Assembly (NCBI RefSeq): GCF_017302985.1
Contig: NZ_JAFIMU010000007.1
Coordinates: forward strand, 2,867,001 to 2,931,000
Length of the DNA: 64,000 bases
Reading direction: 5' to 3'
From: Corallococcus macrosporus
GTDB taxonomy: Bacteria > Myxococcota > Myxococcia > Myxococcales > Myxococcaceae
Part shown: piece after piece, positions 180 through 13,568 of the stretch
How positions within the stretch are numbered: the first letter of the stretch is position 1
Layout of the letters: each line of letters opens with the position of its first letter
Position numbers and translations under genes: made by a program
Notes under the pieces: model-generated
Told to the model about the DNA's origin: nothing
What the model saw: the letters and a program-made list of their open reading frames with translations, nothing else
The model's database searches: none

Positions 180-284
180 CGTCCCTCTCCGGAAAGTGCG
201 TCCTTGAGGCCGGGAGAAGACACGAGCCGGGAGCACGGAGGGAGTCCGCGCGAGGGAACTGTTCAATCCCTGCTCACGCGTCTG

Positions 285-2963
285 TCATGCGCCCGTCAGG
301 GGCACGGGCGGCGCCACGGGCGGCTCCAGCGGGAGGAAGAGCCGGAAGATGGTGCCCTTGCCCGTCTCCGGCGTGTCCAGCGACACCTGGCCCAGGTGCG
401 AATCCATGATGCGCTTCACCAGCGCGAGCCCCAGCCCGGTGCCCTGCGCCTTGGTGGTGAAGAAGGGCTCGAAGACGCGCGCGCGCAGCTCCGCGGGGAT
501 GCCCGGTCCCGTGTCGCAGATCTCCACCTGGACGCCGGCCCGGTCCATCCACGCCTTGCGCGCCACCACGCGCAGCGTGCCGCCCTGGGGCATGGCCTGC
601 ACGGCGTTGAGCGCGATGTTGAGGAAGCACTGGCGGATGAGCCGCTCGTCCACCGTCACCGGCGGCACGTCCTCCTCCATCATCCACTCCACCCGCACCG
701 GGTGCGGCAGGGTGGCGCCCACGTCGGAGAGCGCGCTGCCCACCGCCTCCTCCAGGAGCTGCGACACGGACACCGGATACGGGTGCGGCGACGGAGGCCG
801 CGCGAAGGTGAGCAGGTCCGCGACCATGCGGTCCAGCCGGTCCGCCTCCTCGCCCACGATGTCCAGCAGCGCCGTCGCCGCGCTCTCCGGACCGACGATG
901 CGGCGGATGGTGGCCACGGAGTTGAAGATGGCGCCCAGGGGGTTTCGCACCTCGTGGGCCACCACCGCGGACAGCTCGCCCAGCGCGGCCAGCCGCTCGC
1001 GGTTCACCAGTTGCTCCTGCGTGCGCGCCAGCTTCGCGTAGCTCTGCTTCAGGTCCTCCACCAGCCGCGCGCCCTCCAGCGCCAGCGACAACTGGTTGGC
1101 GATGGCGTCCGCGCGCTCCAGTTCCGCGGGCGTGAAGCGGCGCTGCCGGCGCGTCTCCACCATCACCGCCACGCCCACCATCTGGTCGTGCACGGCGAGC
1201 GGCAGCACCATGTACGACATGCCCTCCGCGGCCTGGCGCAGCTCGTCGTTGAGCCGCACCTCCGTGCTCGCGTCCTCCACCCGCAGCGGCTGGCGCGAGC
1301 GGAACACCTGGCCCGCCAGCGAGCTCGACGACAGGTCCAGCGGCACCTCGCGCCCCAGCAGCTCCGGGTGGCTGCCCGTCGCGGCGCGGATGGCCAGACG
1401 CTGGCCTTCCGCGTCCGGCAGCAGCACGTACGCGTCCGGCACGTCCACGATGCGCGCCAGGCTGGTGACGCCCGTGGCCAAGAGCCGGTCCAGCTCCAGC
1501 GTGGCGGCCAGCGCCTTGCCCACCTCGTGCATCAGCGCCAGGTCCTCCGCGCGGCCGCGCACCTCGTCCAGCAGCCGGTGGGACTCGATGGCCGCCGCGA
1601 AGTGCGTGCCCATGGCCTGGAGCGTCTCCACCTCCAGCGCGGTGAGCCGCCGGCGCGCGTGGAACAGCACGCTCAACGTGCCCACGCCCCGCGAGCGCAC
1701 CCGCAGCGGCACCGACACCAGCGTCTGGAACGCCAGGGCCCGGAGCGCGTCGCGCGTGGGCGCGGGACACGCCTCCGCGTCCAGCACCTGCACCGCGTCC
1801 GGCATCCCGCCCGGACGGGGCAGCGAGCCCAGCCGCGCGCGGCGCACGCGCGCCACCGCGTCCTCGGACAGGCCTCGCGAGTAGACCAATTCCAGCGGCT
1901 CGCCCGGCTCGTGCCGCGTGTCCGCGGGCAGCAGCAGGCACACCGCGTCGCAGCCCAGCAGGCCGGAGATCTCCTCCGTGCCGGAGCCGAAGAAGGCGCG
2001 CGGGTGTGGCGCCGCCGCGGCCTGCGCCGCCAGCCGTCCCAGCGCGGTGAGCGCGGTGGCGCGCACGCTCAGCCGCTGGATGGTGCGCGCCGCGTCCAGC
2101 GCGGAGGACACCTGCTGTCCGAACAGCCGCACCGCGGCCACGTCCTCCTCGCTCAGCCACTCCGAGGCCAGCACCAGCATGGCCATGGGCGCGTTCTCCA
2201 CGTCGATGCGCACGCCCACCGCCCGGTGCGTCTCCGCGCGGCGGAACACCGCCAGCACCGCGTCCATGCGCGCCTCGGACACGAAGCGGGACGCCTCCAC
2301 GCCCAGGTCCTCCACCCACGCGTCGCCGTCGCGCCAGGTGCGCACCAGCGCGGGCGCCCAGCCGCCGGGGGCCTCCGCGCGCACGCGGCCTCCCAGCGCC
2401 GGCGCGTGCGGCACCAGCCGGGGGGACAGCCCCGCCACGGACAGCTCCACGCCCACGCCCCGGGGCGTCAGCCACGCGAAGCCCAGCTCCAGCGCCTCCA
2501 GCCCGCGGAACACCTCCTCGCGCACCGCGTCCTCGGAGTGCAGCGCGCGCACCGCGCTGCCCAGCTCCGCCAGCCGCCGCAGCACCATGCGGCGCCGCAC
2601 GCGCGAGGTCACGTCGCGCACCTGCACCACCCAATCCCGGGCGTGCGGATGCACCGTCAGCTCCACGCGCACCCCGCTGCCCGCGACGTGCAGCCATGCC
2701 TCGTAGGTGCCCGCCACCGGAGACGTGCCCAGCCGCCGCGCCAGCCGGTCCGCCGGGTCCTCCAGGGGGCCCGGCTCCCACAGCAGCGACGTCACCGGCT
2801 GGCCCACCAGCAGCTCGCGCGCGACGCCCGTCAGGCGCGACATCGCGGCGTTGGCGTGCACGAGCAGACCGTCCCGAAGCACGAACACGCCCAGGGGCAT
2901 GTCGTCGAAGAGGCGGTACACCGCCCCCGGCTCCTCGGAAACCGTCCCCACCCGACGGTTCAT
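285..2963 (-). CDS. PAS/GAF sensor histidine kinase
   Basis: An 892-residue histidine kinase without membrane segments. In order: an N-terminal PAS domain (about residues 15-130, starting near YRLFDDMPLGVFVLRDG), a weaker GAF-like stretch, a GAF-type domain at about 310-460, a second GAF at about 475-640, then the HisKA helix with the phospho-acceptor His in VVAHEVRNPLGAIF (about residue 665), and a HATPase_c domain with N box (NIALNAVQAM), G1 (DTGPGIP), F (FEPFFTTK) and G2 (GTGLGLALV). The chosen ATG has GAGGAG about 10 bases upstream. The frame stays open farther upstream, but that stretch has no kinase character. It is transcribed away from the PqqD-like gene, and no partner regulator is adjacent. 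It probably senses a cytoplasmic small molecule; the ligand is unknown. Confidence 0.88.
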   Translation of the reverse strand: MNRRVGTVSEEPGAVYRLFDDMPLGVFVLRDGLLVHANAAMSRLTGVARELLVGQPVTSLLWEPGPLEDPADRLARRLGTSPVAGTYEAWLHVAGSGVRVELTVHPHARDWVVQVRDVTSRVRRRMVLRRLAELGSAVRALHSEDAVREEVFRGLEALELGFAWLTPRGVGVELSVAGLSPRLVPHAPALGGRVRAEAPGGWAPALVRTWRDGDAWVEDLGVEASRFVSEARMDAVLAVFRRAETHRAVGVRIDVENAPMAMLVLASEWLSEEDVAAVRLFGQQVSSALDAARTIQRLSVRATALTALGRLAAQAAAAPHPRAFFGSGTEEISGLLGCDAVCLLLPADTRHEPGEPLELVYSRGLSEDAVARVRRARLGSLPRPGGMPDAVQVLDAEACPAPTRDALRALAFQTLVSVPLRVRSRGVGTLSVLFHARRRLTALEVETLQAMGTHFAAAIESHRLLDEVRGRAEDLALMHEVGKALAATLELDRLLATGVTSLARIVDVPDAYVLLPDAEGQRLAIRAATGSHPELLGREVPLDLSSSSLAGQVFRSRQPLRVEDASTEVRLNDELRQAAEGMSYMVLPLAVHDQMVGVAVMVETRRQRRFTPAELERADAIANQLSLALEGARLVEDLKQSYAKLARTQEQLVNRERLAALGELSAVVAHEVRNPLGAIFNSVATIRRIVGPESAATALLDIVGEEADRLDRMVADLLTFARPPSPHPYPVSVSQLLEEAVGSALSDVGATLPHPVRVEWMMEEDVPPVTVDERLIRQCFLNIALNAVQAMPQGGTLRVVARKAWMDRAGVQVEICDTGPGIPAELRARVFEPFFTTKAQGTGLGLALVKRIMDSHLGQVSLDTPETGKGTIFRLFLPLEPPVAPPVPLTGA

Positions 2964-3143
2964 GCGCTCTGTGCTCCTCACCGCTCCACCTTCGCACCCC
3001 TCGCGCCCGCGGTGAAGCCACCCCCGCCGGTCAATCGCCCACCAGCGCACAACACTGGCCCCCCTCTGGCCCGGCGCGTCGTCGCGAGACCCGGCACGTC
3101 CGCAAACCCTCTCATGGTCCCCCAACCCAAATCCTTGCATGTG

Positions 3144-3172
3144 TTGACAGTGTTGGTGAGAGCCTTTAGAAA
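3144..3172 (+). promoter_or_regulatory. Sigma-70-like promoter of the PqqD-like gene
   Basis: A perfect TTGACA (3144-3149) is followed after 17 bases by TAGAAA (3167-3172), a four-of-six match to TATAAT. The short region is noticeably richer in A and T than its surroundings. Transcription would start near 3179, giving a leader of about 30 bases with the strong ribosome-binding site AAGGAAAGGGG before the TTG start at 3208. Confidence 0.6.
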
Positions 3173-3207
3173 CATGGAAATGTAACAACGCAAGGAAAGG
3201 GGATGTC

Positions 3208-3486
3208 TTGAACCTGCCCCACGCGACTTCCGGCGTCATCGTCCAGCAGCAGGACGGGGCCTTCTTCCTCCTGGACACCGAAGGGGGAGAGGTCTTCCGG
3301 GTGAACGAGACCGCCGCGCGCATCTTCGAGCTGTGCCAGGGCGGCACGTCCCTGGAGGGGGCGGTGGCGTCACTGGCGCAGCGGCTGAACGCCACGGGTC
3401 AGGAGGAGGCCATCCGCGCGGACGTCCAGCGCACCGTGGCGCAGTTCCAGGAACTGGGGCTGTGCCAGCCCTCGCGTCCCGTCTGA
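3208..3486 (+). CDS. PqqD-like protein, probable RiPP recognition element
   Basis: A 92-residue protein that matches the PqqD fold end to end. A beta hairpin (VIVQQQDGAFFLLDTEGGEV) leads into FRVNETAARIFELCQGGTSL, the hallmark loop and helix of PqqD proteins, followed by two helices and a closing ELGL. PqqD-fold proteins bind leader peptides and deliver them to modifying enzymes (RiPP recognition elements). The start is a TTG with AAGGAAAGGGG six bases upstream; no in-frame ATG fits. It lies 246 bases before two tiny peptide genes on the same strand, suggesting that it binds their leaders. Stand-alone PqqD proteins also occur outside RiPP loci, so the role is inference; the fold call is strong. 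Confidence 0.8.
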   Translation: MNLPHATSGVIVQQQDGAFFLLDTEGGEVFRVNETAARIFELCQGGTSLEGAVASLAQRLNATGQEEAIRADVQRTVAQFQELGLCQPSRPV

Positions 3487-3600
3487 TTTCCGCCGTCCGC
3501 TGAGCTGTCTTTTGCCCCGCGTGAGGGGACTGGCCGGGTCATGTCCTGGTCATTGGGAATCCCGTGTGCCCGGGTCGCCCCGGGTGCGCGTGATGCCAGA

Positions 3601-3619
3601 CGTGAGACGTCTTTTCACG
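3601..3619 (+). promoter_or_regulatory. Short palindrome upstream of the precursor peptides
   Basis: The 246-base gap between the PqqD-like gene and the first peptide gene holds CGTGAGACGTCTTTTCACG. Its core AGACGTCT (3605-3612) is a perfect 8-base palindrome, flanked by CGTGA and TCACG. It could be an operator for the peptide genes. I see no clear -35/-10 pair in this gap. Weak evidence: a palindrome of this length can occur by chance. Confidence 0.25.
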
Positions 3620-3732
3620 GCTGGAACGAAGCACGGTGTGTCGACAGGCAATGTCAGACCCCCTGTCCACACTCCGCCATGTTTCACCGCAGTGGCTGTG
3701 AATGCAGCAATCCATCCCAGGAGAAACACACC

Positions 3733-3834
3733 ATGTACATCCAGTCCGAGATCGTCCGCGTTTCCGCCGCCACCGACAAGTGCACCTGCTCCATGGGCAT
3801 GGGCGTCCTCACGACGACCACGAGCGCCGAGTAG
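3733..3834 (+). CDS. Putative RiPP precursor peptide 1 (33 residues)
   Basis: A 33-residue peptide preceded by CAGGAGAA. Residues 1-16 (MYIQSEIVRVSAATDK) look like a leader. They are followed by a Cys-Thr-Cys pair at 17-19, SMGMG at 20-24, and a Thr-rich tail VLTTTTSAE. The first 24 residues are identical to peptide 2, while the tails differ. Tiny size, duplication, a shared N-terminal block and a variable C-terminus are typical of ribosomal peptide precursors. The neighbours (PqqD-like protein, DUF692 enzyme, methyltransferase, exporter) support this. DUF692 enzymes of the MbnB/TglH class modify cysteines, so Cys17 and/or Cys19 are the likely targets. The Met-Gly-Met-Gly stretch could instead be a cleavage region. 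The final product cannot be predicted. Confidence 0.75.
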   Translation: MYIQSEIVRVSAATDKCTCSMGMGVLTTTTSAE

Positions 3835-3955
3835 TCACGGCCGCCGTTTCCCAGGCCTCAACACCCATCTCAGGAGAACCACCATGTACATCCAGTCCGA
3901 GATCGTCCGCGTTTCCGCCGCCACCGACAAGTGCACCTGCTCCATGGGCATGGGC
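3733..3955 (+). repeat. 72-base exact direct repeat in the twin peptide genes
   Basis: The first 72 bases of the two peptide genes (3733-3804 and 3884-3955) are identical at every position, including third codon positions. The bases after them differ. Such identity implies a recent duplication or ongoing gene conversion. The ribosome-binding sites are also alike (CAGGAGAA in both), but the rest of the 49-base spacer is not repeated. Confidence 0.9.
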
Positions 3956-3979
3956 ACCGTGATCGTCAACGCGGAGTAA
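3884..3979 (+). CDS. Putative RiPP precursor peptide 2 (31 residues)
   Basis: A paralogue of the previous peptide, 49 bases downstream, with its own CAGGAGAA ribosome-binding site. Residues 1-24 are identical to peptide 1, including the Cys-Thr-Cys pair and SMGMG; the tail is TVIVNAE instead of VLTTTTSAE. Only the last seven to nine residues vary, and both tails end in Ala-Glu. That pattern suggests either one modified Cys block with two different tails, or a conserved recognition block with two variable cores. It is followed at once by a strong hairpin, so this pair may be transcribed at a higher level than the enzymes behind it. Confidence 0.75.
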   Translation: MYIQSEIVRVSAATDKCTCSMGMGTVIVNAE

Positions 3980-3990
3980 CGCGTTTCATG

Positions 3991-4022
3991 GCCGGGAGGA
4001 GGGCCTCGGTCCTCCTCCCGGC
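3991..4022 (+). terminator. Strong hairpin after the precursor genes (attenuator or mRNA stabiliser)
   Basis: A perfect 12-base-pair stem, GCCGGGAGGAGG / CCTCCTCCCGGC, encloses the 8-base loop GCCTCGGT and is followed by TGTGTCTTTCCT rather than a clean T run. It begins 11 bases after the stop of peptide 2 and ends 36 bases before the Lon-like gene. Partial termination or protection of the upstream mRNA from 3' decay would make more precursor than enzyme, as is common in RiPP operons. Confidence 0.65.
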
Positions 4023-4058
4023 TGTGTCTTTCCTCGAGCGCGCCGACACGCCCCGCCC

Positions 4059-4679
4059 ATGCTGCCCGCATCCACGCAGTTGCTGCTCTTCACCCAGGCG
4101 GACGTCGGCGGACACGCGCTCTTTCGCGTCGTGCCCGTGGAGGTGTCCGTGCGCCCCGGCCAGGGACGGCTGTGGACGGACGTGTCACGGGGCAATGCCT
4201 TCACCCCCGCGTGGCAGGACCATGCGCGCCACCTGGCGGCGGTGGGCCGCGAGCGCTACGCGCTGCCGTGGGATGAGACGGACCTGCACGTCTCTCCGCG
4301 CGGCCGCAACGTGACGCTGGATGGCCGGAGCGCGTCGCTGCCGCTGTTCGTCGCGTGGGTGGCGCTGCTCTCGGGCGTGCCGCTGCCGTCGCCCTTCCTG
4401 GGCACGGGCGTGGCGCTGGAGGCGCATGGGGAAAAGCTCGCGCCCGCGCCGCGCGAGTTCCTCCAGGGAAAGCTGGGCGTGGCGCAGGCCTATGTGACGC
4501 AGGTGTTTCCGCGAGCGGGGCGGGTGGCGGTGTTCGTGCCGGAGGGCAGCGGGTTCGACCCGGCGCCCCTGACGGCGCTGGACGTGCGGCCGGTGCCCAC
4601 GCTCACGCGGGCGGTGGACGCGGTGCTGGGGCTGAAGCGTCACGCGGATGAGGCCGGCGCCGGAGGGGTGGGGGGATGA
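4059..4679 (+). CDS. Stand-alone Lon-type (S16 fold) protease-like protein
   Basis: 206 residues. The C-terminal two thirds follow the Lon proteolytic domain. DLHVSPRGRNVTLDGRSAS (76-92 region) parallels the Lon stretch ending in DGPSAG, placing the catalytic-Ser equivalent at Ser91. Then come a helix (LFVAWVALLSGVPLP), GTGVAL, a Lys at 138 (LQGKLGVAQA) near the Lon Lys position, VAVFVPEGS, and LDVRPVPTLTRAVDAVLG like the Lon end. There is no AAA+ ATPase or Lon N domain. The Ser-Lys spacing (47) is close to that of Lon (about 43), so it may be active; the usual Gly after Ser-Ala is Ser here. Its position right after the peptide genes suggests a leader peptidase or binding role. It overlaps the MFS gene by 4 nt (ATGA). 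I see no good ribosome-binding site for this ATG. Confidence 0.6.
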   Translation: MLPASTQLLLFTQADVGGHALFRVVPVEVSVRPGQGRLWTDVSRGNAFTPAWQDHARHLAAVGRERYALPWDETDLHVSPRGRNVTLDGRSASLPLFVAWVALLSGVPLPSPFLGTGVALEAHGEKLAPAPREFLQGKLGVAQAYVTQVFPRAGRVAVFVPEGSGFDPAPLTALDVRPVPTLTRAVDAVLGLKRHADEAGAGGVGG

Positions 4680-5992
4680 TCCGCCAGGGCGCCGGTGCCA
4701 TCCGGGAGATGTACGGGCTGACGCGGGGGCTGGGAAATCTCAGGGTGATGCTGGGCTCGGGGCTCCTGGGCATGGCGGCCTCCGGCCTGCTCAACCCGGT
4801 GATGCCGCTGTACCTGCGCTCGCGCGGGCTGGGCTTCCAGGAGATTGGCGCGCTCTACACGGTGGGGGCGCTGCTGCCCATCTTCGTGCAGCCGGTGCTG
4901 GGGGCGCTGTCGGACCGCCATGGGCGCAAGCCCTTCGTGGTGGGGCTGTCGCTCGTCACGTCGCTGATGGTGCCGGCGGTGGCGCTGGTGGATGACCCGC
5001 AGCCGCTCGCCGCCGTGATGATCCTGAAGATGCTGCTGTCGCGCAGCGCGGCGCCGGTGTCCAACGCGATGGTGGCGGACTTCGCGCCCGCGAAGCAGCG
5101 CGCCACCCTCTTCGCGCTGCTGGACGCGACGTCGAACCTGGTGTTCGTCGCGGCGCTGTTCGCGTCCTCCGCCGTCATCCGCGCGCTGTCGGTGGCGGGC
5201 ACCTTCTTCCTGGCGGGCGGCCTGTTCCTCGCGGGCAGTCTGCTCCTCCTGGGGCTGGATGAACCGGCGCGGCCGCCGCGCGCGGAAGCGGGACGGGCGA
5301 GCGCGGGCGCGGGGTGGGGGCTGGCGTTCCGGGGGCTGCTGTCGCCGTTCACCTACGTGAAGGACCGGCCAGGCGCGGCGGCGCTGTTCCTCTGGCAGTT
5401 CTTCTTCACCTTCGCGCTGGCGCTGTTCCCCACGTACCTGCCGCTGTACGCGGTGGAGCTGGGCGCGCCCCGCGAAGCGGTGGGCCCGCTGGTGGCGGCG
5501 TCGTGGCTCACGTACGCGTTCGCGCAGCCCTTCGGTGGGCGGCTGTCGGACCGGATGTCCCGGCGCGTGGGGCTGATCGCGCCGGGCCTGGCGGGCATGG
5601 CGGTGATGGCCGCGGTGCTGGGGGCCTGCGGGTGGCTGCCGGACGGCGCCGCGCTGCTGACGCTGGTGGCGGCCTGGGTGCTGCTGGCGGTGCCGGATGG
5701 CCTGCACCGCTCCTCCGCGTCCGCGCTGGTGGTGGAGCAGTCCCCCGGCCCTTCCGAGCGCGGCCGGTTCATGGGCGCGCTGGGCTCCTGTTCCGCGGTG
5801 GCGTCCGTGCTCGCGCCCGTCACGTATGGCTTCGTCGCGCAGGCCGCCGGCATCGGCTGCGCGTTCCTTCTTTCGTCGGTGTCCCTCGTGCTGGCGCTCG
5901 GCTGTGTGTCGCGCGTGCGCGAGGCGTCCGCCCACGCCCCGTCTGAACCGGCCCCCGTGGCCGCCCTCACCCCCACCTCGGAGCCCGGATGA
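4676..5992 (+). CDS. Major facilitator superfamily transporter
   Basis: A 438-residue inner-membrane protein with about twelve hydrophobic helices in two halves. The MFS loop-2 signature is present as GALSDRHGRKPFVVG in the first half and repeated as GGRLSDRMSRRVG in the second. A loose Ala/Arg-rich loop (about 200-225) separates the halves. It starts inside the stop of the Lon-like gene (ATGA) and its own stop overlaps the next start the same way, so it is translationally coupled at both ends. In this setting it most likely exports the modified peptide or fragments of it. Its MFS subfamily cannot be told by eye. Confidence 0.85.
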   Translation: MIRQGAGAIREMYGLTRGLGNLRVMLGSGLLGMAASGLLNPVMPLYLRSRGLGFQEIGALYTVGALLPIFVQPVLGALSDRHGRKPFVVGLSLVTSLMVPAVALVDDPQPLAAVMILKMLLSRSAAPVSNAMVADFAPAKQRATLFALLDATSNLVFVAALFASSAVIRALSVAGTFFLAGGLFLAGSLLLLGLDEPARPPRAEAGRASAGAGWGLAFRGLLSPFTYVKDRPGAAALFLWQFFFTFALALFPTYLPLYAVELGAPREAVGPLVAASWLTYAFAQPFGGRLSDRMSRRVGLIAPGLAGMAVMAAVLGACGWLPDGAALLTLVAAWVLLAVPDGLHRSSASALVVEQSPGPSERGRFMGALGSCSAVASVLAPVTYGFVAQAAGIGCAFLLSSVSLVLALGCVSRVREASAHAPSEPAPVAALTPTSEPG

Positions 5993-8118
5993 GCCCCCTT
6001 CGCCACGTCTGTCGCTGGGGCACCGCGCTGTTGGCCGCGCTGGTGCCCACGCTGGGACACGCTGATTCAACGTACAAGGTCACCGCGACGCGCACGCAGG
6101 AAACCATCACCATCGACGGCAAGGGGGATGAGCCCGCGTGGCAGGCGGCCCCGGAGATCTCCGGCTGGTACCTCACGCGCGTCAACTACGGCAAGCCCGC
6201 GCCGGACGACACGAAGGTCCGCATCCTCTACGACGAGGACAACCTCTACTTCCTCTTCCACTGCCTGGACACGAAGCCGGAGCGCATCACCGGCTACACG
6301 GTGCAGAACGAGGGGTTCCTCCACCAGGAGGACAACATCACCATCATCCTGGACACGTTCCTGGACCACCGGAACGCGTACTACTTCTGGACCAACCCGC
6401 TGGGCGTGCGCACCGACGGGCGCATCGTGGATGACGGCGAGGCGTTCTCCACCAACTGGCGCGGTGAGTGGGAGACGAAGTCCACCATTGTGAAGGACGG
6501 ATGGATTTCGGAGGTGCGCATCCCCTTCGCCAACTTCCAGTTCGAGACGAAGGACGACATCTCCTTCGGCATGCTCCTGGACCGCGAGCAGTCCCGCAAC
6601 CAGGAGTGGAGCAACTGGACGCCCGACGGCGTCAACAGCGCGAAGGTGAGCCGCTACCCGCACCTGGAGGGGTTGAAGGGCATCAAGCCGCGCTCCATCT
6701 TCAGCATCACCCCGTACGTGGCCACCACGGTGGCGCTGAAGACGACGGACGACCGGGGCACCTTCCGTCCCAACGTGGGCGCGGACGCGCGCATCGACCC
6801 GACGCCCTGGCTGTCGGTGAAGCTCACCGCCAACCCGGACTTCAGCGACGCGGAAGCGGACCAGAGCTTCCTCCTGCTGGACACGGATCAGCCGCTGCTG
6901 CCGGAGCGCCGCTCGTTCTTCACGGAGAGCGAGCACCTCTTCATCGCGCCCATCAGCATCTTCAGCTCCCGCCGCATCGCGCTGCGGCCGCATGACCGGG
7001 TGTGGGGCGGCCTGCAGCTCACCGGCAAGGTGAGCGGCCTCAGCTTCTCCATGCTGGACGTGCAGCACCGCGACCTCTCCGGCCGCGACGCGCAGGGGCG
7101 CGAGGCCTTCGAGAACGTCAACTCCGGCGTGCTGCGGTTGCAGCAGGACATCGGCAAGCGGTCGATGATTGCCCTGGTGGCCATCAACCGCAGCGGGCGG
7201 GGCGGGCTGTACGGGGACTCGGACTTCCAGACGGTGGGCGTGGACGGCAACTTCCACCTCTTCGAGGAGTTCTTCATCCAGGCGCAGGCGCTGAAGAGCT
7301 GGAGCCCGCTGGGCAACGAGGACTCGGACGCGTACCACGTGGGCCTGCACCGCTTCGACACGCTGTCGGAGGTCTGGCTGCAGTTCGAGGACATCGGGAA
7401 GAACTACGCGAACCCGTTGGGCTGGACGCCGGTGGTGGACAAGCAGGGCTACAACTCGCGCGTGTTCCTCAACCCGTTCCCCAAGTGGCGCTTCCTGCCG
7501 CGGCTGGACGTGACGTGGGACTCGCTGTGGCGCCGCAACCACGAGCACGAGCGCACGCGCTGGCGCAACCGCCTCAACGTGCAGCCCTACCTGCACCACG
7601 ACTTCGCGCTCTACCTGGAGGGCATCTACGACGACAACCTGGGCTTCCGCGACCGGCTGGGCACGTTCGGCTTCACCCTGTTCCCGCACGACTGGCAGAG
7701 CTACACGCTGACCGCCGTCGCCGGCCGCTTCCTGGGCGGGGAGATCCGCGGCTTCAACGGCTCGGCGAACATCAAGATTGGCCCGCACATCGTCGCGCGC
7801 TTGAGCGGCTTCTACACGCGCAACTTCAACGTGCCCACGAACAGCGACCTCTACGGCACGTCCGGAGACGGCTACAGCTTCTCCGGCTACGCGCAGCTTC
7901 GCTACCACTTCAGCCCGGACCTCTACGCGCGCGTGACGCTGCAGAAGGGCGGCGTGTACGAGCTGGCGGACTACAACGCCGTGAAGGGCACGTTCCTGGA
8001 CGCGATGGTGGGGTGGCACTACCGCCAGTGGAGCGACATCTTCCTCGTCTACACGGATCAGCCCTTCGGCGGCTCCCAGGAGCGGCGGATCCTCTCGAAA
8101 ATCTCCTTCAACTACTGA
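5989..8118 (+). CDS. Outer-membrane DUF5916-type protein with CBM9-like N-domain
   Basis: 709 residues. A signal peptide (cut after GHA, about residue 26) is followed by a CBM9-like beta-sandwich at about 35-225: TITIDGKGDEPAWQAAPEI at its start, then VRILYDEDNLYFLFHC, and ILDTFLDHRNAYYFWTNPLG. The remaining 480 residues alternate polar and aromatic residues in the manner of an outer-membrane beta barrel and end in KISFNY, with a terminal aromatic typical of barrels. This layout is that of DUF5916 proteins, whose function is unknown; a role in surface binding or passage of a ligand is plausible. It sits inside the peptide cluster with 4-nt coupling to the MFS gene, so it may carry the product across, or recognise it at, the outer membrane. 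Confidence 0.8.
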   Translation: MSPLRHVCRWGTALLAALVPTLGHADSTYKVTATRTQETITIDGKGDEPAWQAAPEISGWYLTRVNYGKPAPDDTKVRILYDEDNLYFLFHCLDTKPERITGYTVQNEGFLHQEDNITIILDTFLDHRNAYYFWTNPLGVRTDGRIVDDGEAFSTNWRGEWETKSTIVKDGWISEVRIPFANFQFETKDDISFGMLLDREQSRNQEWSNWTPDGVNSAKVSRYPHLEGLKGIKPRSIFSITPYVATTVALKTTDDRGTFRPNVGADARIDPTPWLSVKLTANPDFSDAEADQSFLLLDTDQPLLPERRSFFTESEHLFIAPISIFSSRRIALRPHDRVWGGLQLTGKVSGLSFSMLDVQHRDLSGRDAQGREAFENVNSGVLRLQQDIGKRSMIALVAINRSGRGGLYGDSDFQTVGVDGNFHLFEEFFIQAQALKSWSPLGNEDSDAYHVGLHRFDTLSEVWLQFEDIGKNYANPLGWTPVVDKQGYNSRVFLNPFPKWRFLPRLDVTWDSLWRRNHEHERTRWRNRLNVQPYLHHDFALYLEGIYDDNLGFRDRLGTFGFTLFPHDWQSYTLTAVAGRFLGGEIRGFNGSANIKIGPHIVARLSGFYTRNFNVPTNSDLYGTSGDGYSFSGYAQLRYHFSPDLYARVTLQKGGVYELADYNAVKGTFLDAMVGWHYRQWSDIFLVYTDQPFGGSQERRILSKISFNY

Positions 8119-8138
8119 CCTGCCCGAGGGCTTCTCGC

Positions 8139-8981
8139 ATGACCGCCGCCGATCCGCAGAGCCTCAAGCGCCGCTACGACGAGGTGTCCCCGAAGTACGA
8201 CCAGGGCGCGCCCAACGCCATGGCCATCAAGCTGTTCTGGCTGACCTACGAGCACCTCACCTGGAAGCCCGTGGAGGCGCTGCTGCCGGAGGACGGCACG
8301 GCCTGGCGCGTGCTGGACGCGGGCGGCGGCGGCGGCAAGTTCGGCACGCGCTTCGCGGAGAGAGGGCACCACGTCACCGTGCTGGACATCTCTCCGGGCA
8401 TGCTGGACGGCGCGAAGGCGCAGTTCGCCGCGAAGGGGCTCCTGGACCGCGCGGCCTTCGTGGAGGGGAACGTCGCGGCGCTGGAGCTGCCGGACGCGGC
8501 CTTCGACCTGGTCTTCTGTGAAGGCGACCCGGTGTCGTACTGCCTGGACGCGTACCCGCGCGCGGTGAAGGAGCTGGTGCGCGTGGCGAAGCCGGGCGCG
8601 CCGGTGGTGCTGGGCGTGGACAACCGCTACGAGGCGTTCTCCGGCTACCTGAAGCAGGGCAAGCCGCAGGAGGCCTTCCGCACGCTCCACGACGGCCGCA
8701 CGACGTGCCCCTACGGCCTGCCGGTGCACGCCTTCACCGTGCGCGAGCTGGAGCGCGCGGTGGCGGACGCGGGCGCGGAGTTGATCGAGATTTTCGGCAA
8801 GCCGGTGATGTTCTTCGACATGCTCCACGCGATGACGGCCGCGCACGGCGGCACCGCGGAGAAGCCGTGGGACGCGTGGTCCGCGCGCGAGGAGATACTG
8901 GCGCTGCAGGAGAAGCTGGCGCACGAGGGCTTCGCCGTCCTGGGGCAGCACCTCCAGGTGATGGCGCGGCGGAAGGCCTGA
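8139..8981 (+). CDS. Class I SAM-dependent methyltransferase
   Basis: 280 residues with a Rossmann methyltransferase fold. Motif I is VLDAGGGGGKFGTRFAERG, followed by the acidic end of strand 2 (VTVLDISPGML) and the motif IV region FDLVFCEGDPVSYC. It resembles small-molecule Methyltransf_11 and Methyltransf_25 enzymes. It lies 20 bases after the outer-membrane gene and 4 bases before the DUF692 gene. In DUF692 loci such as the methanobactin and chryseobasin types, methyltransferases occur as tailoring enzymes. A methylated peptide, for example on a thiol or terminus, is the inferred product; the substrate is not shown by sequence. Confidence 0.82.
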   Translation: MTAADPQSLKRRYDEVSPKYDQGAPNAMAIKLFWLTYEHLTWKPVEALLPEDGTAWRVLDAGGGGGKFGTRFAERGHHVTVLDISPGMLDGAKAQFAAKGLLDRAAFVEGNVAALELPDAAFDLVFCEGDPVSYCLDAYPRAVKELVRVAKPGAPVVLGVDNRYEAFSGYLKQGKPQEAFRTLHDGRTTCPYGLPVHAFTVRELERAVADAGAELIEIFGKPVMFFDMLHAMTAAHGGTAEKPWDAWSAREEILALQEKLAHEGFAVLGQHLQVMARRKA

Positions 8982-8985
8982 CGCC

Positions 8986-9816
8986 ATGGGCCTTCCCTTC
9001 CTGGGCGTGGGGCTCAGCTACCGCTGGGACCTCAATCCGCACCTGGCGCGAGGCAACCCCGGCGTGGACTGGCTGGAGGTGACGCCCGAGCACTTCCTGC
9101 CGCTCACGCCGGACTCGGAGCGGCGGCTGGAGCTGCTCGCGAAGCGCTATCCGCTGGTGGGCCACAGCCTGGAGCTGTCGGTGGGCTCGGACGGCGTGGA
9201 CGCGCCCGGCTACCGCGAGGGCCTGAAGCGCATCCGCCACGTCACGAAGAGCGTCTGGCACGGGGACCACCTGTGCTTCACGCGCGTGGGGAACGTGCCC
9301 CTGCGCGCGCTGACGCCGGTGCCGCTGACGGAGGAGGCGGTGGCCACGTGCGTGCGCAACCTGAAGGCGGCGCGGGCGGACCTGGACGTGCCCTTCGTGG
9401 TGGAGAACATCGCGTATCTCTTCCACACGCCGCTCAACACGCTGGACGAAGCGCAGTTCCTGCGCCGCGTGGTGGAGGGCGCGGACTGCGGCCTGCTGCT
9501 GGACCTGCACAACCTGTATTGCAACGCGGTCAACCACGGGTTCGACCCGTATGCCTTCCTGGACCGTCTGCCTTTGGAGCGCGTGGTGCAGGTGCACCTG
9601 GCGGGCGGTGTCACGATGGAGGGATTGAGATTGGACAGCCACTCCGCGCCGTCGCCGGAGGAGGTGTGGCGCCTGCTGGAATACGTGGCGCCACGCAGCC
9701 CGGTGCGCGGGGTGAACTTCGAGATGGACAGCGGCTTTCCTCCCTTCGCGCGGCTGGTGGAGGAGCTGGCCCGTGCGCGCGCCATCCTCCAGCGCTGCGG
9801 TGCGAGCGCGGCATGA
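8986..9816 (+). CDS. DUF692 family multinuclear non-haem iron enzyme (MbnB/TglH-type)
   Basis: 276 residues, the usual DUF692 length, with the TIM-barrel motifs in order: GVGLSYR (7-13), VDWLEVTPEHF (27-37), GHSLELSVGS (59-68), HGDHLCFTRVG (92-102), PFVVEN (136-141), GLLLDLHNLYCNAVNHGFDP (169-188), VQVHLAGG (201-208), LDSHS (216-220) and FEMDS (245-249). Candidate iron ligands are His60, His95, Glu140, Asp173, His184, His204, Asp217, His219 and Glu246; one Asn usual in the family (DVNN) is His here. Known members (MbnB, TglH, ChrH) oxidise Cys residues of precursor peptides, using a partner protein. The Cys-Thr-Cys peptides upstream are obvious candidate substrates. Its stop overlaps the next start by 4 nt. 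Confidence 0.92.
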   Translation: MGLPFLGVGLSYRWDLNPHLARGNPGVDWLEVTPEHFLPLTPDSERRLELLAKRYPLVGHSLELSVGSDGVDAPGYREGLKRIRHVTKSVWHGDHLCFTRVGNVPLRALTPVPLTEEAVATCVRNLKAARADLDVPFVVENIAYLFHTPLNTLDEAQFLRRVVEGADCGLLLDLHNLYCNAVNHGFDPYAFLDRLPLERVVQVHLAGGVTMEGLRLDSHSAPSPEEVWRLLEYVAPRSPVRGVNFEMDSGFPPFARLVEELARARAILQRCGASAA

Positions 9817-10409
9817 GCTACCCACGAACGTTGGAGGTCCTGGCGCGGCTGCACGTGGATCCGCGCTTTCGTGAAGCGTGGCGCCACGATGCCCGCGCGG
9901 CCCTGGCCCCGCTGGACCTGACGCCGTTGGAAGCGCAGGCCCTTCAACGGGTGGAGCCCGTGGTGGTGGAGCGCGCCGGCCGGATGATGGACTTCCACCG
10001 CACCGAGCGCGTGCGCGAACAGCTCCCCTGGGTGGACGAAGCGAAGCGGCCGGAGCTGGCCCCGCTGCGAGCGCGCTTCCTCCAGGACGTGCCGCCGGAG
10101 GTGCTCAACCGCGAGGAGGCCATCGCGTACTGCCACTTCCTGGAGGCAGGGGAGCACGCGCAGCGGCTGCCCGCGTACGTGCCGCAGTTGGCGCGGTGTG
10201 AACGGCTGCGCCTGTCGCTGGCGTGGGGCCTGGTCCCCCTGCCGGCGTCAGGCCCGCGCGTGGAGTCCTTCGATTATCCGGTGCTCACGCTGCTCGCCGC
10301 GCTGGACGCGCCGGGCTGGCCCCCGGTGGCGCCGAAGCCCACGCGCGTGGAGTACCTCAAGGTGCCGAACCTGCCCGCCGTGATGCTGCGCGAGCTGCCG
10401 TCACCTTGA
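9813..10409 (+). CDS. Probable DUF692 partner protein (MbnC/DUF2063-like)
   Basis: 198 residues, beginning in the stop of the DUF692 gene (ATGA). The N-terminal part (RLHVDPRFREAWRHDARAAL, then LDLTPLEAQALQRVE) is an all-helical block like those in LigA-like and NHLP-leader domains. The middle stretch AIAYCHFLEAGEHAQRLPAY with VPQLARCERLRLSL resembles the DUF2063 family, whose members pair with DUF692 proteins. The C-terminus is predicted beta-rich. DUF692 enzymes generally need such a small partner to bind the leader peptide. The partnership rests on position and coupling; the family match is loose. This is the last gene of the cluster; the next gene is on the other strand. Confidence 0.65.
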   Translation: MSYPRTLEVLARLHVDPRFREAWRHDARAALAPLDLTPLEAQALQRVEPVVVERAGRMMDFHRTERVREQLPWVDEAKRPELAPLRARFLQDVPPEVLNREEAIAYCHFLEAGEHAQRLPAYVPQLARCERLRLSLAWGLVPLPASGPRVESFDYPVLTLLAALDAPGWPPVAPKPTRVEYLKVPNLPAVMLRELPSP

Positions 10410-10427
10410 GGGCTCCAGGACGCCTGT

Positions 10428-10934
10428 TCAGTGGGGGTGCTCCGCCCGCCGGTGGTGCGTCTTCTCATAGGTGCCCATGAGCTGCGTCTCCCCGACGATG
10501 TGGCCCTCCATCGCCTGGAGCAGCTGCGTGCGGGTGGGCTGCTTCAGGTCCGGCAGCACCGTGTCCAGGGCGTACAGCTTGAAGAAGTACCGGTGGTTGC
10601 CGATGGGGGGCATGGGACCGCCGTAGTCCTGCCGGCCGAAGTCGTTGCGCCCCAGCTTCACCCCCTCCGGCAGCACGTCCAGGGTGGCCCCGTCCGGCAG
10701 GCTCTGGGCGTTCACGGGGAGGTTGTAGAGGACCCAGTGGCAGAAGGTGCGCTGGGGGTTCGCCGGGTCCGGCGCGTCCGGGTCCTCCACGATGAGGGCC
10801 AGGCTCTTGGCCCCGGCGGGCAGGTTCTCCCAGTGCAGGGGCGGCGCCCGGTCTTCCCCCTCGCCGGTGTAGGCGATGGGGATGGGCGTTCCGTCCTTGA
10901 ACTTCGGCGAGGTGAGTTCGAGCGGCTTCGGCAT
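10428..10934 (-). CDS. PEBP family protein (YbhB/YbcL type)
   Basis: 168 residues, the standard size of bacterial phosphatidylethanolamine-binding-like proteins. Typical motifs are present: ELTSPKFKDGTPIP at the start, GEDRAPPLHWENLPAGAKSL, the ligand-pocket stretch VEDPDAPDP, HWVLYNLP, and GNHRYFFKLYALD. There is no signal peptide, so it is cytosolic. The molecular role of this family in bacteria is poorly defined. It converges on the peptide cluster with 18 bases between stops and is not part of it. Confidence 0.92.
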   Translation of the reverse strand: MPKPLELTSPKFKDGTPIPIAYTGEGEDRAPPLHWENLPAGAKSLALIVEDPDAPDPANPQRTFCHWVLYNLPVNAQSLPDGATLDVLPEGVKLGRNDFGRQDYGGPMPPIGNHRYFFKLYALDTVLPDLKQPTRTQLLQAMEGHIVGETQLMGTYEKTHHRRAEHPH

Positions 10935-11320
10935 GCGTGGACTCCTTGGGCATGAGTGGCCAACGTGCCCCCTGCCAAGCTGGCGATGCCGTCCGCCCGG
11001 TGCTGAGAGGCAGCGGGCGCGACGCCCGGCCGCCCGTCACCCCCGTTCGTGCCTCCCCCGTCGCTGATCCACCGGGCGCCCCCCGGGCCGCCTGCTACAG
11101 GACCCCATCCCTTAGAGGAGAAACACCCCCCATGGACCCCTCGAGGTGGTAGCTGCGCTTGCGGGTGCCGCAACCGCTGCTGGCACCCTGGAGCCCCGCG
11201 TCCCCGTACCGGTTGCACGCGCCGCGCATTCGGTGCTAAGCGGCGCCCGCGCGTGTATGGGCGGGGTCGGGGTTGGTGAAGGAAACCCAAGACTTTCCCG
11301 GGGTTTGGTGAGGCGTCCGC
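10935..11320 (+). promoter_or_regulatory. Control region upstream of the F0 operon, with a mini reading frame and a hairpin
   Basis: A 386-base gap between the divergent PEBP gene and atpZ. It contains a ribosome-binding site (AGAGGAG) followed by a six-codon frame, MDPSRW, at 11132-11152. Just behind that is a hairpin, GGGTGCC (11163-11169) / GGCACCC (11182-11188). This could be a leader peptide with an attenuator or simply chance. No clear -35/-10 pair was seen. The rest of the gap shows nothing recognisable. Confidence 0.3.
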
Positions 11321-11587
11321 ATGGCAGACCAGGAGCCTCGCAAGCAGGAGGACGCGCCGGGCAGTGAGCTGGGCGAGACGGCCCGGCAGATGCGGGCGGC
11401 GGAGCCGTACATCTCCGCGGTCTGGAAGCTGGTGGGCGGGGCGGTGGTGGGGGTCCTGGGAGGGTACTTCCTGGACAAGTGGCTGGGGACTGCGCCCTGG
11501 CTGCTCCTGGGGCTGAGCCTGGTGGGGATTGGCGTGGGGTTCTACGGCTTCCTCCACGCGATGAGCCAGCTGGGGAAGCGCAAGTGA
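11321..11587 (+). CDS. atpZ: AtpZ/AtpI-like F0F1 ATP synthase assembly protein
   Basis: 88 residues with a charged N-terminus and two membrane helices: KLVGGAVVGVLGGYFLDKWL, then a second beginning LLLGLSLVGIGVGF. The GGYFLDKWLGTAPW stretch is the signature of AtpZ/AtpI small proteins that assist assembly of the c ring or Mg2+ handling. It is the first gene of the F0 set, and its stop overlaps the next start (GTGA). The start ATG follows a GTGAGG sequence. Confidence 0.8.
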   Translation: MADQEPRKQEDAPGSELGETARQMRAAEPYISAVWKLVGGAVVGVLGGYFLDKWLGTAPWLLLGLSLVGIGVGFYGFLHAMSQLGKRK

Positions 11588-11997
11588 CGGGGAAGGGTGG
11601 GCAGCCGAAGCGGGATGCGTTCTGGACGCACGCGGGGCTGGCGGCGGCGGTGATGGGCGTGGGGGCGGTGGTGGCGGCGGCGCTGCCCAAGGAGACGGAC
11701 GACCGGGTCTCAGCGCTGCTCGGAGTGGGGATCGCGGCGGTGACGGGCGTGCTGGCGCTGGTGCTGAAGCGGCGCGCGGCGATGCAGGCGGATTTGAAGG
11801 CGGCGTTGAAGGTGGTCGGTGTGGTCTTCGCCCTCAGGGGCGTGGGCGTCGGGCTGGGGTTGGCGTGGGTGGTGTCCCGGGGTTTGAGCGCGATCGCGTT
11901 CGTGGGCGGCTTCTTCGGCGTCTACTTCGCGCTGCAGTGGATTGAAGTCAGCTACGTGATGGCCACGTCGAAAGACGCGGCGGGCGGAGACGAGTGA
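11584..11997 (+). CDS. atpI: ATP synthase subunit I-like membrane protein
   Basis: 137 residues, starting with GTG inside the stop of atpZ. Four hydrophobic segments are visible (near residues 15-32, 42-60, 75-98 and 102-120). The ATP synthase I family has this size and topology and lies before atpB in many genomes. Sequence motifs are weak, so the name rests on topology and position. Its stop shares one base with the atpB start (TGATG), indicating translational coupling. Confidence 0.7.
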
Positions 11998-13049
11998 TGC
12001 GCAAGGCAATGGTGCTGTTCGCCTGTCTGTTCGCGGGCACCGTGTGGGCCTCCAGTCAGGCCGGCGAGCACGGCGTGGCGAACGAGGACAAGGACGCCGA
12101 GGGCGAGGACGTCGCCGGCTACATCCTCCATCACGTGTCCGACTCGAACGAGTACGAGTTCGAGGTCCCCCTCAGCCACAACCACATCCCCATCCACCTG
12201 CCGCAGATCCTCATCCCGTTCCACGAGGGTGCCTGCACGCCGGTGGCGGATCCGCACGGCGGCCACGGTGAGGTGTACCCGGGCCTGGGCCAGGGCTGCC
12301 TGGACCTCTCCATCACCAAGCACACGGTGATGATGTGGCTGGCGGCGCTGCTGCTCATCGGCGCGCTCATGATCTGGAGCAACCGCGACAAGACGAAGCT
12401 CGTGCCGCGCGGCGCCGGTGCGAACCTCTTCGAGATGCTGGTCCTCTTCGTTCGCGACGAGCTGGCCATCAAGAACATCGGCAAGGAGGAGGGTCCCCGC
12501 TACGTGCCCTACCTGCTGACCGCGTTCTTCTTCATCCTCTTCATGAACCTGCTGGGCCTGTTCCCCTGGATGGCGACCGCCACGGGCAACATCGCCATCA
12601 CGTGCGGCCTGGCGCTGTGCACCTTCTTCGTCACGCAGGCGGCGGGCATCCGCGCGGCGGGCATCGGTGGCTACCTCAAGCACCTGACGGGCGGCGTGGC
12701 CCCCTGGCTGTGGCCCATCATGATTCCGGTGGAGTTCCTGGGCCTGTTCACCAAGCCCTTCGCGCTCACCATCCGCCTCTTCGCCAACATGCTGGCGGGC
12801 CACATCGTCATCTTCTTCCTGCTGGGCCTCATCTTCATGCTCCGCAACCCCGCGGTGGCCCTGGTGAGCGTGCCGTTCGCCTTCGGCATCTACCTGCTGG
12901 AGCTGTTCGTGGCCTTCGTGCAGGCGTACGTGTTCACCATGCTGTCGGCGCTGTTCATCGGGATGAGCGTGGCCATGGGCCACCACCACGATGACCACCA
13001 CGAGGGTGGCGCCAGCCACGACCACGGCAAGGCCCACCACCTGGGCTGA
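11997..13049 (+). CDS. atpB: F0F1 ATP synthase subunit a
   Basis: 350 residues with an N-terminal signal-like hydrophobic stretch ([18 protein letters not shown]) and a long periplasmic segment before the first core helix. That extension is longer than in E. coli and typical of delta-proteobacteria. The five-helix core has the invariant proton-channel Arg in [11 protein letters not shown] (Arg260), followed by LAGH. The C-terminus is His/Asp-rich ([11 protein letters not shown]), which is unusual and might bind metal. Subunit a forms the half-channels that pass protons to the c ring. Confidence 0.96.
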
Positions 13050-13060
13050 GACAAGTTGAC

Positions 13061-13124
13061 GGGGCGCCCGCCGGAAACGACGGCGCGCCCCGGTTGAAGA
13101 CCCGGCGGTTCGAAAGGCCGCCGG
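13061..13124 (+). other. Two hairpins between atpB and atpE
   Basis: The 145-base gap holds two stable inverted repeats: GGGGCGC (13061-13067) with GCGCCCC (13085-13091), and CCGGCGG (13102-13108) with CCGCCGG (13118-13124) around TTCGAAAGG. Neither has a T run. RNA elements that protect or isolate the atpE message fit the need for many more c subunits than a subunits per enzyme. Confidence 0.5.
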
Positions 13125-13194
13125 AGGTTGTCCAAAAGGGCCCCCACGACCCCCCCACAAGCGGGTCCCGCCTCACGAAAGAAGACGTGCTCCC

Positions 13195-13425
13195 ATGACC
13201 AACCTCGCTCTTGCCTTCCTCGCCGCCGGTATCGGCGCTGGCCTCTCCATCATCGGCGCCGCCCTCGGCATCGGTAAGCTGGCCGCCGCCGCCATGGACG
13301 CCACGGGCCGTCAGCCGGCCGCTGGTGGCGACATCCGCACCACGATGATCATCGCCGCGGCCCTCATCGAAGGCGCCACGCTGTTCGCGCTGGTCGTCTG
13401 CATCCTGCTCGCCATCAAGGCTTAA
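13195..13425 (+). CDS. atpE: F0F1 ATP synthase subunit c
   Basis: 76 residues forming two membrane helices around a polar loop with the conserved TGRQP. The ion-binding carboxylate is Glu59 in AALIEGATLFALV. The residue after the Glu is Gly, not the Ser/Thr of Na+-binding rings, and the helix-2 Tyr of Na+ types is absent, so a proton ring is inferred. Hairpins on both sides of the gene set it apart from its neighbours at the RNA level. Confidence 0.97.
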   Translation: MTNLALAFLAAGIGAGLSIIGAALGIGKLAAAAMDATGRQPAAGGDIRTTMIIAAALIEGATLFALVVCILLAIKA

Positions 13426-13446
13426 GGCCGGCAGGTCGCAACGGGA

Positions 13447-13480
13447 GCCGGCGTCCTCTTCGGGAAGAAGGGGCGCCGGC
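13447..13480 (+). other. Hairpin between atpE and atpF
   Basis: An inverted repeat GCCGGCG (13447-13453) / CGCCGGC (13474-13480), with partly paired inner bases (CCTCTTC against GAAGAAGG), lies 21 bases after the atpE stop. No T run follows. It probably protects the 3' end of the c-subunit message or lowers read-through into atpF. Confidence 0.45.
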
Positions 13481-13568
13481 GTTCCGGCTTCACCGCCTCA
13501 CGCTGTCCCTGTCTCACCTGAAGTCTCCCGCATCCTCCCTCTGTCTTTCCGTTTCACCGGGACCCGCC

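What the first reader, a model, noticed from the sequence alone, without database searches (positions are those of the whole stretch)
3144..10409. Candidate new RiPP gene cluster built around a DUF692 enzyme and twin Cys peptides
Seen: a PqqD-like protein, two 31-33-residue peptides with Cys-Thr-Cys, a Lon-fold protein, an MFS exporter, an outer-membrane DUF5916-like protein, a methyltransferase, a DUF692 protein and a small partner, all on one strand, with most junctions of 4-nt overlap or under 25 nt. Known: DUF692 enzymes MbnB, TglH and ChrH oxidise Cys in ribosomal peptides with a partner protein. Inferred: these genes make and export a modified Cys peptide of a kind not described with this gene set (S16 protein plus outer-membrane protein plus PqqD).
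Basis: partly seen in the sequence, partly recalled or inferred. Interest (0 to 1): 0.93.

Follow-up and report, generated by a model that had tools for sequence, protein, structure and literature searches.

The report
Multi-copy Cys-x-Cys peptide cassette of myxobacteria
A gene cassette, kept in the same gene order in the myxobacterial genomes examined that carry it, encodes two to nine tiny cysteine peptides with near-constant heads and variable tails (seven fused into one chain in one genome), and it likely makes chemically modified, exported peptides that a stand-alone Lon-type protease is predicted to cut.

Summary
Window 3144-10409 carries PqqD, two Cys-x-Cys peptides, a Lon-fold protein, MFS, a CBM9/DUF5916 (outer-membrane-type) protein, methyltransferase, MNIO (DUF692) and partner. 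Among 195 phylum genomes, precursor profile and this MNIO clade coincide in 22; the Lon-fold protein (145 order genomes searched) is in the same 22. A 23rd has only the MFS-to-partner half, on a short contig. All eight gene types lie in one order on one contig in 19 of the 23. The cassette occupies at least two genomic sites; a same-genus genome keeps relics only.

New findings: 2-9 precursors per locus, with a conserved head (IVRVSAxSDKC[TS]C...M) and a variable tail of 7-13 residues ending in Glu/Gln. One MAG fuses seven units into one ORF, 5 of 6 junctions reading E|I. The 206-aa protein has a Lon proteolytic fold without ATPase; its Ser-Lys pair is kept in 46 of 46 homologues. The partner's best fold match is TglI.

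Best reading: an MNIO RiPP, oxidised at Cys and cut at [EQ]|I by the Lon-like protease. Chemistry, cleavage and purpose are untested. New variant of a known kind.

The parts
3144..3172 (+). promoter-like element, TTGACA (3144-3149) - 17 bases - TAGAAA (3167-3172)
   Evidence: alignment of 21 loci upstream of PqqD (L051 left out): TTGA is in all 21 rows and TTGAC in 20; role inferred
3208..3486 (+). PqqD-like protein (92 aa), predicted RiPP recognition element
   Evidence: PF05402 56.4 bits over cut-off 23.4; matched in 20 of 20 relative loci (frame broken in L051) and in L090
3733..3834 (+). precursor pepA MYIQSEIVRVSAATDKCTCSMGMGVLTTTTSAE
   Evidence: profile hit E 9.3e-18 in own genome (the profile includes this peptide); family of 84 main-locus copies
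3884..3979 (+). precursor pepB MYIQSEIVRVSAATDKCTCSMGMGTVIVNAE
   Evidence: profile hit E 6.7e-17 (the profile includes this peptide)
4059..4679 (+). stand-alone Lon proteolytic-domain protein (206 aa), predicted Ser91/Lys138 protease
4676..5992 (+). MFS transporter, predicted inner-membrane exporter
   Evidence: PF07690 152.7 bits
5989..8118 (+). CBM9 + DUF5916 protein, predicted signal peptide and outer-membrane barrel
   Evidence: PF06452 and PF19313 over cut-off; the only DUF5916 hit in the own genome; signal-like N-terminus and C-terminal SFNY read from sequence, no topology program run
8139..8981 (+). class I SAM-dependent methyltransferase
   Evidence: PF13649 70.1 bits
8986..9816 (+). 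MNIO (DUF692) enzyme
   Evidence: PF05114 255.1 bits; nearest solved chains 3bww, TglH, MbnB; own clade of 43 proteins at 58-96% identity
9813..10409 (+). MNIO partner protein, TglI-like fold

Best explanation
This is a gene cassette of eight gene types, in the same order in Corallococcus, Citreicoccus and Myxococcus/Pyxidicoccus-type genomes, that likely builds and exports a family of ribosomal peptides modified at a Cys-x-Cys motif. Shown by sequence or structure prediction: the gene set, its co-occurrence, the multi-copy precursors with constant heads and variable tails, the Lon fold with an invariant Ser-Lys pair, and the TglI-like partner fold. Inferred steps, in order: PqqD and the partner bind the conserved head IVRVSAxSDK; the MNIO with its partner oxidises one or both Cys of KC[TS]C, most likely to a 5-thiooxazole at the Lys-Cys site, as the characterised enzymes of its nearest model families (HvfB/BufB type) do; the methyltransferase caps the product; the stand-alone Lon-domain protease, working without an ATPase, cuts between [EQ] and Ile, removing MYxx[AS][EQ] and, in the fused form, separating the units; the MFS protein and the CBM9/DUF5916 barrel carry the product across the two membranes. 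The fast-changing tails suggest that one modified head is displayed with many tails, so that the set works like a natural combinatorial library whose tails meet different outside targets, more likely in competition or recognition than in plain metal storage.
For: Co-occurrence: precursor profile strong in 22 of 195 phylum genomes, plus one weak hit at E 0.006; Lon-fold protein strong in the same 22 of 145 order genomes, plus 8 weak hits (29-36% identity, inside frames of 563-929 aa); MNIO clade in those 22 plus G060 of 195, G060 having only MFS-to-partner on a 6.2-kb contig. Order: own window, 17 of 20 relative loci and L090 have all eight gene types on one contig; the other 3 loci end inside MFS, and their remaining genes lie on other contigs; no change of order was seen. 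Site: PEBP and/or atpB follow the partner in the Corallococcus and Citreicoccus loci that reach that far, but not within about 3 kb in L049-L053 or L066/L090. Precursors: 84 main-locus copies at 21 loci; CxCxxxM kept in 82; last residue E 63, Q 19, A 2; residue 6 Q 46, E 37, R 1; residue 7 I 81; Lys-Cys in 81. Fusion: G081 has one 181-aa ORF of seven units, 5 of 6 internal junctions E|I. Protease; Ser-Lys spacing 45-48 in 46 of 46 and the pair in 22 of 22 genome loci; a weak profile alignment sets S91 on Lon's Ser (E 0.5). Partner. MNIO: alignment keeps the His/Asp/Glu/Asn blocks of TglH and MbnB (that these are iron ligands is recalled); BufB 188.9 and HvfB 183.2 bits outrank ApyH 127.5, ChrH 65.3, MbnB 17.6. 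Tail variation: tail pN 0.241, pS 0.038 against head 0.044, 0.069 in six pepA-type copies from six genomes; within-locus equal-length tails 0.242/0.191 against heads 0.025/0.143, 43 pairs.
Against: No product, mass shift or cleavage has been seen. The MNIO is under NCBIfam's cut-offs for all five maturase models that it matched, so its reaction may be new. Precursors lack the EGKCG repeat of thiooxazole peptides (0 of 90), and the six orphan copies, if they are substrates, have Ser-Cys or Thr-Cys instead of Lys-Cys. The Lon-fold protein has no Pfam or NCBIfam hit for Lon, its sequence match to Lon is not significant, and RadA and ComM Lon domains rank level with Lon itself; that these two are not proteases is recalled. 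[EQ] at both ends could serve recognition, not cleavage; one fused junction reads A|I. The pN/pS figures rest on about 10 codons, pairs that share ancestry and ungapped tails that may be shifted, so they are not a formal test of selection. No immunity gene was recognised. Chondromyces apiculatus has a 63% MNIO but no Lon-fold relative was found there, so the two may not always travel together.
Confidence: 0.55

Rival explanations
1. It is a copper-handling peptide system like bufferins/captophorins: the MNIO turns Lys-Cys into 5-thiooxazole and the exported or retained peptides bind copper; the tails are unimportant filler.
For: Nearest MNIO models are BufB and HvfB, nearest solved chain 3bww; Lys-Cys is in 81 of 84 main-locus copies, and a Lys-Cys motif marks one captophorin precursor group (PMC13097082, passages). 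The orphan arrays L155/L156 carry two extra Cys per copy, and the gene upstream in L155 is a ZIP metal transporter (PF02535, 98.5 bits, cut-off 35.1).
Against: No EGKCG repeat, no DUF2282, DUF2063 or DoxX hit among the nine proteins, and no Sec-signal-like stretch in the peptides by reading; tails vary with pN above pS, which a plain buffer would not need; a Lon-like protein and an outer-membrane protein are not in the described bufferin core (PMC12452194, section 12 part 1).
Confidence: 0.25
2. The MNIO makes a Cys-Cys macrocycle or other ChrH-type rearrangement at CTCSxGMG, and the methyltransferase S-methylates it.
For: The motif C-x-C-x-x-G-M of many copies resembles CPACGMG of the ChrH/DybH group (PMC12636315, passages), and a methyltransferase gene is present.
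Against: ChrH model scores only 65.3 bits (cut-off 600) against 188.9 for BufB; CPxCGxG is in 0 of 90 copies; ChrH-type enzymes carry an extra C-terminal helical bundle for which this protein, filled to residue 268 of 276 by PF05114, has no room.
Confidence: 0.12
3. The Lon-fold protein is not a protease but a binding scaffold (like RadA or ComM Lon domains), and host proteases trim the peptides.
Against: The Ser in GxSAS and the Lys in QGK are kept in 46 of 46 homologues with 45-48 spacing, as an active dyad would need; no other protease was recognised in the cassette.
Confidence: 0.25
4. Unrelated neighbouring genes and non-coding repeats misread as peptides.
For: The head is repeated DNA, and six peptides in L048 are identical at 128-base spacing.
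Against: Same order in two genomic settings, one fused in-frame version, Shine-Dalgarno-like leaders before the copies, and pN/pS of 0.15 in heads within loci.
Confidence: 0.02

Closest known systems
3-thiaglutamate (pearlin) TglHI system
   Same: MNIO plus partner; our partner's best fold match is the 268/269-residue chain A of 8hci/8hi7, taken as TglI because TglH is the 304-residue chain; Cys is the likely target
   Different: TglA carries a C-terminal Cys added from cysteinyl-tRNA (PMC9016710, abstract start in listing); here Cys-x-Cys is internal and encoded, in many copies, with a Lon-like protein, PqqD, MFS and OMP
Bufferins and captophorins (BufBC, HvfBC, FonBC)
   Same: closest MNIO models and solved chain; Lys-Cys sites
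   Different: those precursors have Sec signals, DUF2282 or EGKCG repeats and DUF2063 partners (PMC12452194, abstract and sections; PMC13097082, passages); here no DUF2282, DUF2063 or EGKCG was found
Chryseobasin-type ChrH/DybH peptides
   Same: two close Cys followed by Gly-Met; some myxobacterial members (PMC12636315, passages)
   Different: another MNIO subfamily with a helical C-terminal bundle, in the dyb type without an obvious partner; motif CPxCGxG
Biphenomycin-like pbs cluster
   Same: several precursor genes, MNIO plus RRE partner, MFS and a protease of its own (PMC12257519, passages)
   Different: Phe motif, B12 radical SAM, TldD-type metalloprotease instead of a Lon-type serine protease
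Lon (S16) proteolytic domain
   Same: fold, GxSAx block and downstream Lys
   Different: 206 aa, no AAA+ domain, G[RA]SAS in place of GPSAG, not recognised by Pfam

Membership tests
MNIO-modified RiPP cluster | PF05114 enzyme | tested here: met
   255.1 bits, cut-off 25
MNIO-modified RiPP cluster | small precursor genes with conserved Cys near the enzyme | tested here: met
   84 main-locus copies, CxC in all 84 by the search pattern, CxCxxxM in 82
MNIO-modified RiPP cluster | MNIO partner protein (PME) next to the enzyme | tested here: met
MNIO-modified RiPP cluster | oxidised residue in the mature peptide | not testable with these tools
   needs mass spectrometry
Bufferin | MNIO over the BufB cut-off | tested here: not met
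   188.9 bits, cut-off 310
Bufferin | precursor with DUF2282 and Sec signal peptide | tested here: not met
   no Pfam family for either peptide at E up to 1; 31-33 aa without a hydrophobic stretch by reading; no signal-peptide program was run
Captophorin / HvfB type | MNIO over the HvfB cut-off and EGKCG repeats | tested here: not met
   183.2 bits, cut-off 360; EGKCG in 0 of 90 copies
Methanobactin | MbnB over cut-off | tested here: not met
   17.6 bits, cut-off 325
Chryseobasin (ChrH) | ChrH over cut-off and CPxCGxG motif | tested here: not met
   65.3 bits, cut-off 600; motif in 0 of 90 copies
Lon / S16 protease domain | Lon proteolytic fold | tested here: met
Lon / S16 protease domain | Ser-Lys catalytic pair | tested here: met
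   conserved in 46 of 46 and 22 of 22 loci; identity with Lon's pair rests on position and a sub-significant profile alignment
Lon / S16 protease domain | proteolytic activity | not testable with these tools
   needs assay
ATP-dependent Lon protease | AAA+ ATPase domain in the same chain | tested here: not met
   206 residues, of which 4-198 are covered by the proteolytic fold
PqqD / RRE | PF05402 match | tested here: met
   56.4 bits, cut-off 23.4

The most novel reading that the evidence does not exclude
A new RiPP class in which an ATP-independent, stand-alone Lon-type Ser-Lys protease is the dedicated maturation protease, cutting at [EQ]|Ile to release a natural combinatorial library: one MNIO-oxidised Cys-x-Cys head joined to many diversifying tails, encoded as separate genes, as a fused polyprotein, or as distant orphan arrays served in trans.
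Probability: 0.35. Interest if true: 0.86.

Novelty: new variant of a known kind. Interest (0 to 1): 0.74.

Why it matters
If true, it adds a new protease type to RiPP maturation, and it offers a cassette in which one modified head is naturally varied through dozens of tails (63 distinct tails among 82 on-pattern main-locus copies). That is a ready comparison set for what the tails do. It also gives a clean test of MNIO chemistry on a C[TS]C motif, and, because the carriers belong to a predatory group of soil bacteria, a lead on peptides used between cells. The fused seven-unit version predicts the processing site from sequence alone, which is easy to test.

Tried and rejected
Chance neighbours: rejected by co-occurrence and two genomic settings. 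Filing as bufferin, captophorin, methanobactin or chryseobasin: cut-offs and motifs not met. A genome-wide repeat explaining the conserved AATGTCAGACCCCCTGT before pepA: rejected, it occurs once in the own genome; its role is unknown. A solved sequence relative of the outer-membrane protein: none up to E 1. Literature for DUF5916 with outer membrane and for Corallococcus with DUF692: no paper; for Lon with leader peptidase or leader peptide and RiPP: one paper each, the first on the SecYEG translocon by its listing, the second on BREX-like genes near lanthipeptides by its passages. Absence of Lon-fold relatives outside Myxococcaceae is not shown: the database and genome scans reach only fairly close relatives, and the Chondromyces contig could not be fetched.
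Full report
What is there. Nine + strand frames of eight gene types fill 3208-10409, preceded by a promoter-like TTGACA-17-TAGAAA at 3144-3172; TTGA is in all 21 aligned loci and TTGAC in 20 (L051 was left out). Pfam names PqqD, MFS, CBM9 + DUF5916, methyltransferase and MNIO; it does not name the peptides, the 206-aa protein or the partner above cut-off. The last gene is followed by a PEBP gene on the other strand and further on by an atpB gene, which are not part of the cassette.

Co-occurrence. The Lon-fold protein was sought in 145 genomes of the order: 22 strong hits (61-100% identity) and 8 weak ones (29-36%) inside frames of 563-929 aa. The MNIO at E <= 1e-80 was sought in 195 genomes of the phylum: 23 hits, the same 22 plus G060. 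A profile of 20 precursors (A2) in the same 195 genomes: the same 22, plus one weak hit (G151, E 0.006). By contrast any MNIO is present in 126 of the 195, so it is this MNIO clade that goes with the precursors, not MNIOs in general. Neighbourhoods: 20 relative loci were examined; 17 show all eight gene types in the same order and 3 are cut by contig ends inside MFS (L010, L045, L046). The other genes of those three genomes lie on other contigs (L092, L093, L094). L090 (G081) has all eight types, with the precursors fused; G060 (L091) has only the MFS-to-partner half. So, window included, 19 of 23 genomes have the full set on one contig. One locus (L051) has a frame break in PqqD. In the large protein search, several Lon-fold and MNIO hits share the same longest-contig length (for example 10593, 7344 and 15856 bases), suggesting that the link persists at 50-64% identity; this was not checked on the DNA.

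Names. Database homologues of the Lon-fold protein that bear an organism name are Myxococcaceae. The MNIO clade (43 proteins at 58-96% identity, the next hits at 50% or less; 120 of 1536 hits were listed) also holds one from Chondromyces apiculatus (63%), where no Lon-fold relative turned up.

Movement and loss. PEBP and/or atpB follow the partner in Corallococcus and Citreicoccus loci that reach that far, but not, within the roughly 3 kb or more held, in the five Myxococcus/Pyxidicoccus-type loci L049-L053 or in L066/L090. The cassette is thus kept together at two or more sites. G069, a one-contig genome of the same genus, gave no precursor, Lon-fold or MNIO hit at the thresholds. At the same site it aligns, of window 1-14000, only to 311-3241 (two pieces), 8828-9145 and 10161-12118, the last ending with the locus. 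Window 3242-8827 and 9146-10160 have no match there: relics of a lost cassette.

Precursors. One search lists 90 copies: 84 at 21 main loci (2 to 9 per locus) and 6 in two orphan arrays. At main loci 82 of 84 keep CxCxxxM; the two exceptions are divergent third peptides in L043 and L044. The head (residues 1-23) is on average 94% identical between copies of one locus (191 pairs). The 63 distinct tails of 7-13 residues end in E or Q; over all 84 the last residue is E 63, Q 19, A 2 (the two divergent peptides), and residue 6, before Ile7, is Q 46, E 37, R 1. In G081 the same unit is repeated seven times in one 181-residue frame; five of six internal junctions read E|I and one A|I. The simplest reading is that [EQ]|I is a processing site and that the single peptides begin and end at the same site. 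Orphan arrays (L155, L156) hold three precursors each, with two extra Cys per copy and Ser or Thr in place of Lys before the first Cys; no other cassette gene was found on those 8.8-8.9-kb contigs, and a ZIP metal-transporter gene lies upstream in L155.

Rates. Nei-Gojobori proportions: heads within loci pN 0.037, pS 0.241 (191 pairs); equal-length tails within loci 0.242, 0.191 (43 pairs) against heads of the same pairs 0.025, 0.143; equal-length tails between loci 0.492, 0.377 (570 pairs) against heads 0.150, 0.230; heads over all 3828 pairs 0.161, 0.278; six pepA-type copies from six genomes, tail 0.241, 0.038 and head 0.044, 0.069 (heads there at 0.64, so not strongly constrained by this measure). 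For this 88 of 90 copies were used; the two off-pattern peptides were dropped, and the orphan arrays were included. Pairs share ancestry and tails are aligned without gaps, so this shows hypervariability, not proven positive selection.

Mechanism and limits. The committed model is given in Best explanation. My separate estimates: RiPP cassette 0.92; MNIO acts on the Cys-x-Cys 0.8; 5-thiooxazole in particular 0.35; Lon-like protein cuts [EQ]|I 0.5; export by MFS and OMP 0.75; tails serve competition or recognition 0.4. Nothing here measures a product.

Literature. I saw of PMC12452194 the abstract, section 12 part 1 of 4, sections 17 and 18, and a word search; passages only of PMC12257519, PMC12636315, PMC13097082, PMC13174530, PMC12715929 and PMC13097080. 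PMC9016710 was seen only as an abstract start in a listing. Ten searches of the open-licence library listed no title or abstract start describing this gene set; their longer hit lists were capped, and subscription papers and supplements were not searched.

Noticed in passing
L155 1754-2182 and L156 1730-2159 (reverse-complement coordinates): Two genomes carry a second array of three precursors with two extra Cys per copy, without the other cassette genes on the contig; in L155 a ZIP metal transporter gene (PF02535) lies upstream.
   Followed up: partly
L158 (G069), against window 3242-8827 and 9146-10160: A same-genus genome keeps only relics of the cassette at the same site.
   Followed up: yes
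L048, reverse-complement 2834-3575: Six peptides identical in sequence at 128-base spacing, probably a recent tandem expansion.
   Followed up: no
L043 3185 and L044 3915 (reverse-complement coordinates): A third, divergent peptide with Cys-Met-Cys-Cys and an Ala end follows the normal copies.
   Followed up: no
window 3487-3732: The 246-base gap before pepA holds AATGTCAGACCCCCTGT, single in the own genome; its core ATGTCAGACCCCCTG is in all 14 Corallococcus-type rows. Rows of other genera show a hairpin-like stretch such as TGTGTGTTTC...GAAACACACA there.
   Followed up: partly
partner N-terminus, window 9813-9999: The MNIO partner's N-terminal helices resemble the Os1348/NHLP fold and, more weakly, borosin precursor domains, hinting at a shared origin of partner and leader domains.
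   Followed up: partly
own genome G000 C4:335072, C13:19262, C10:114791: Three further MNIO genes lie elsewhere in the same genome; the precursor profile matched only the two window copies in this genome.
   Followed up: no
L051 10931-11190: PqqD frame is broken in one genome that otherwise has the full cassette.
   Followed up: no
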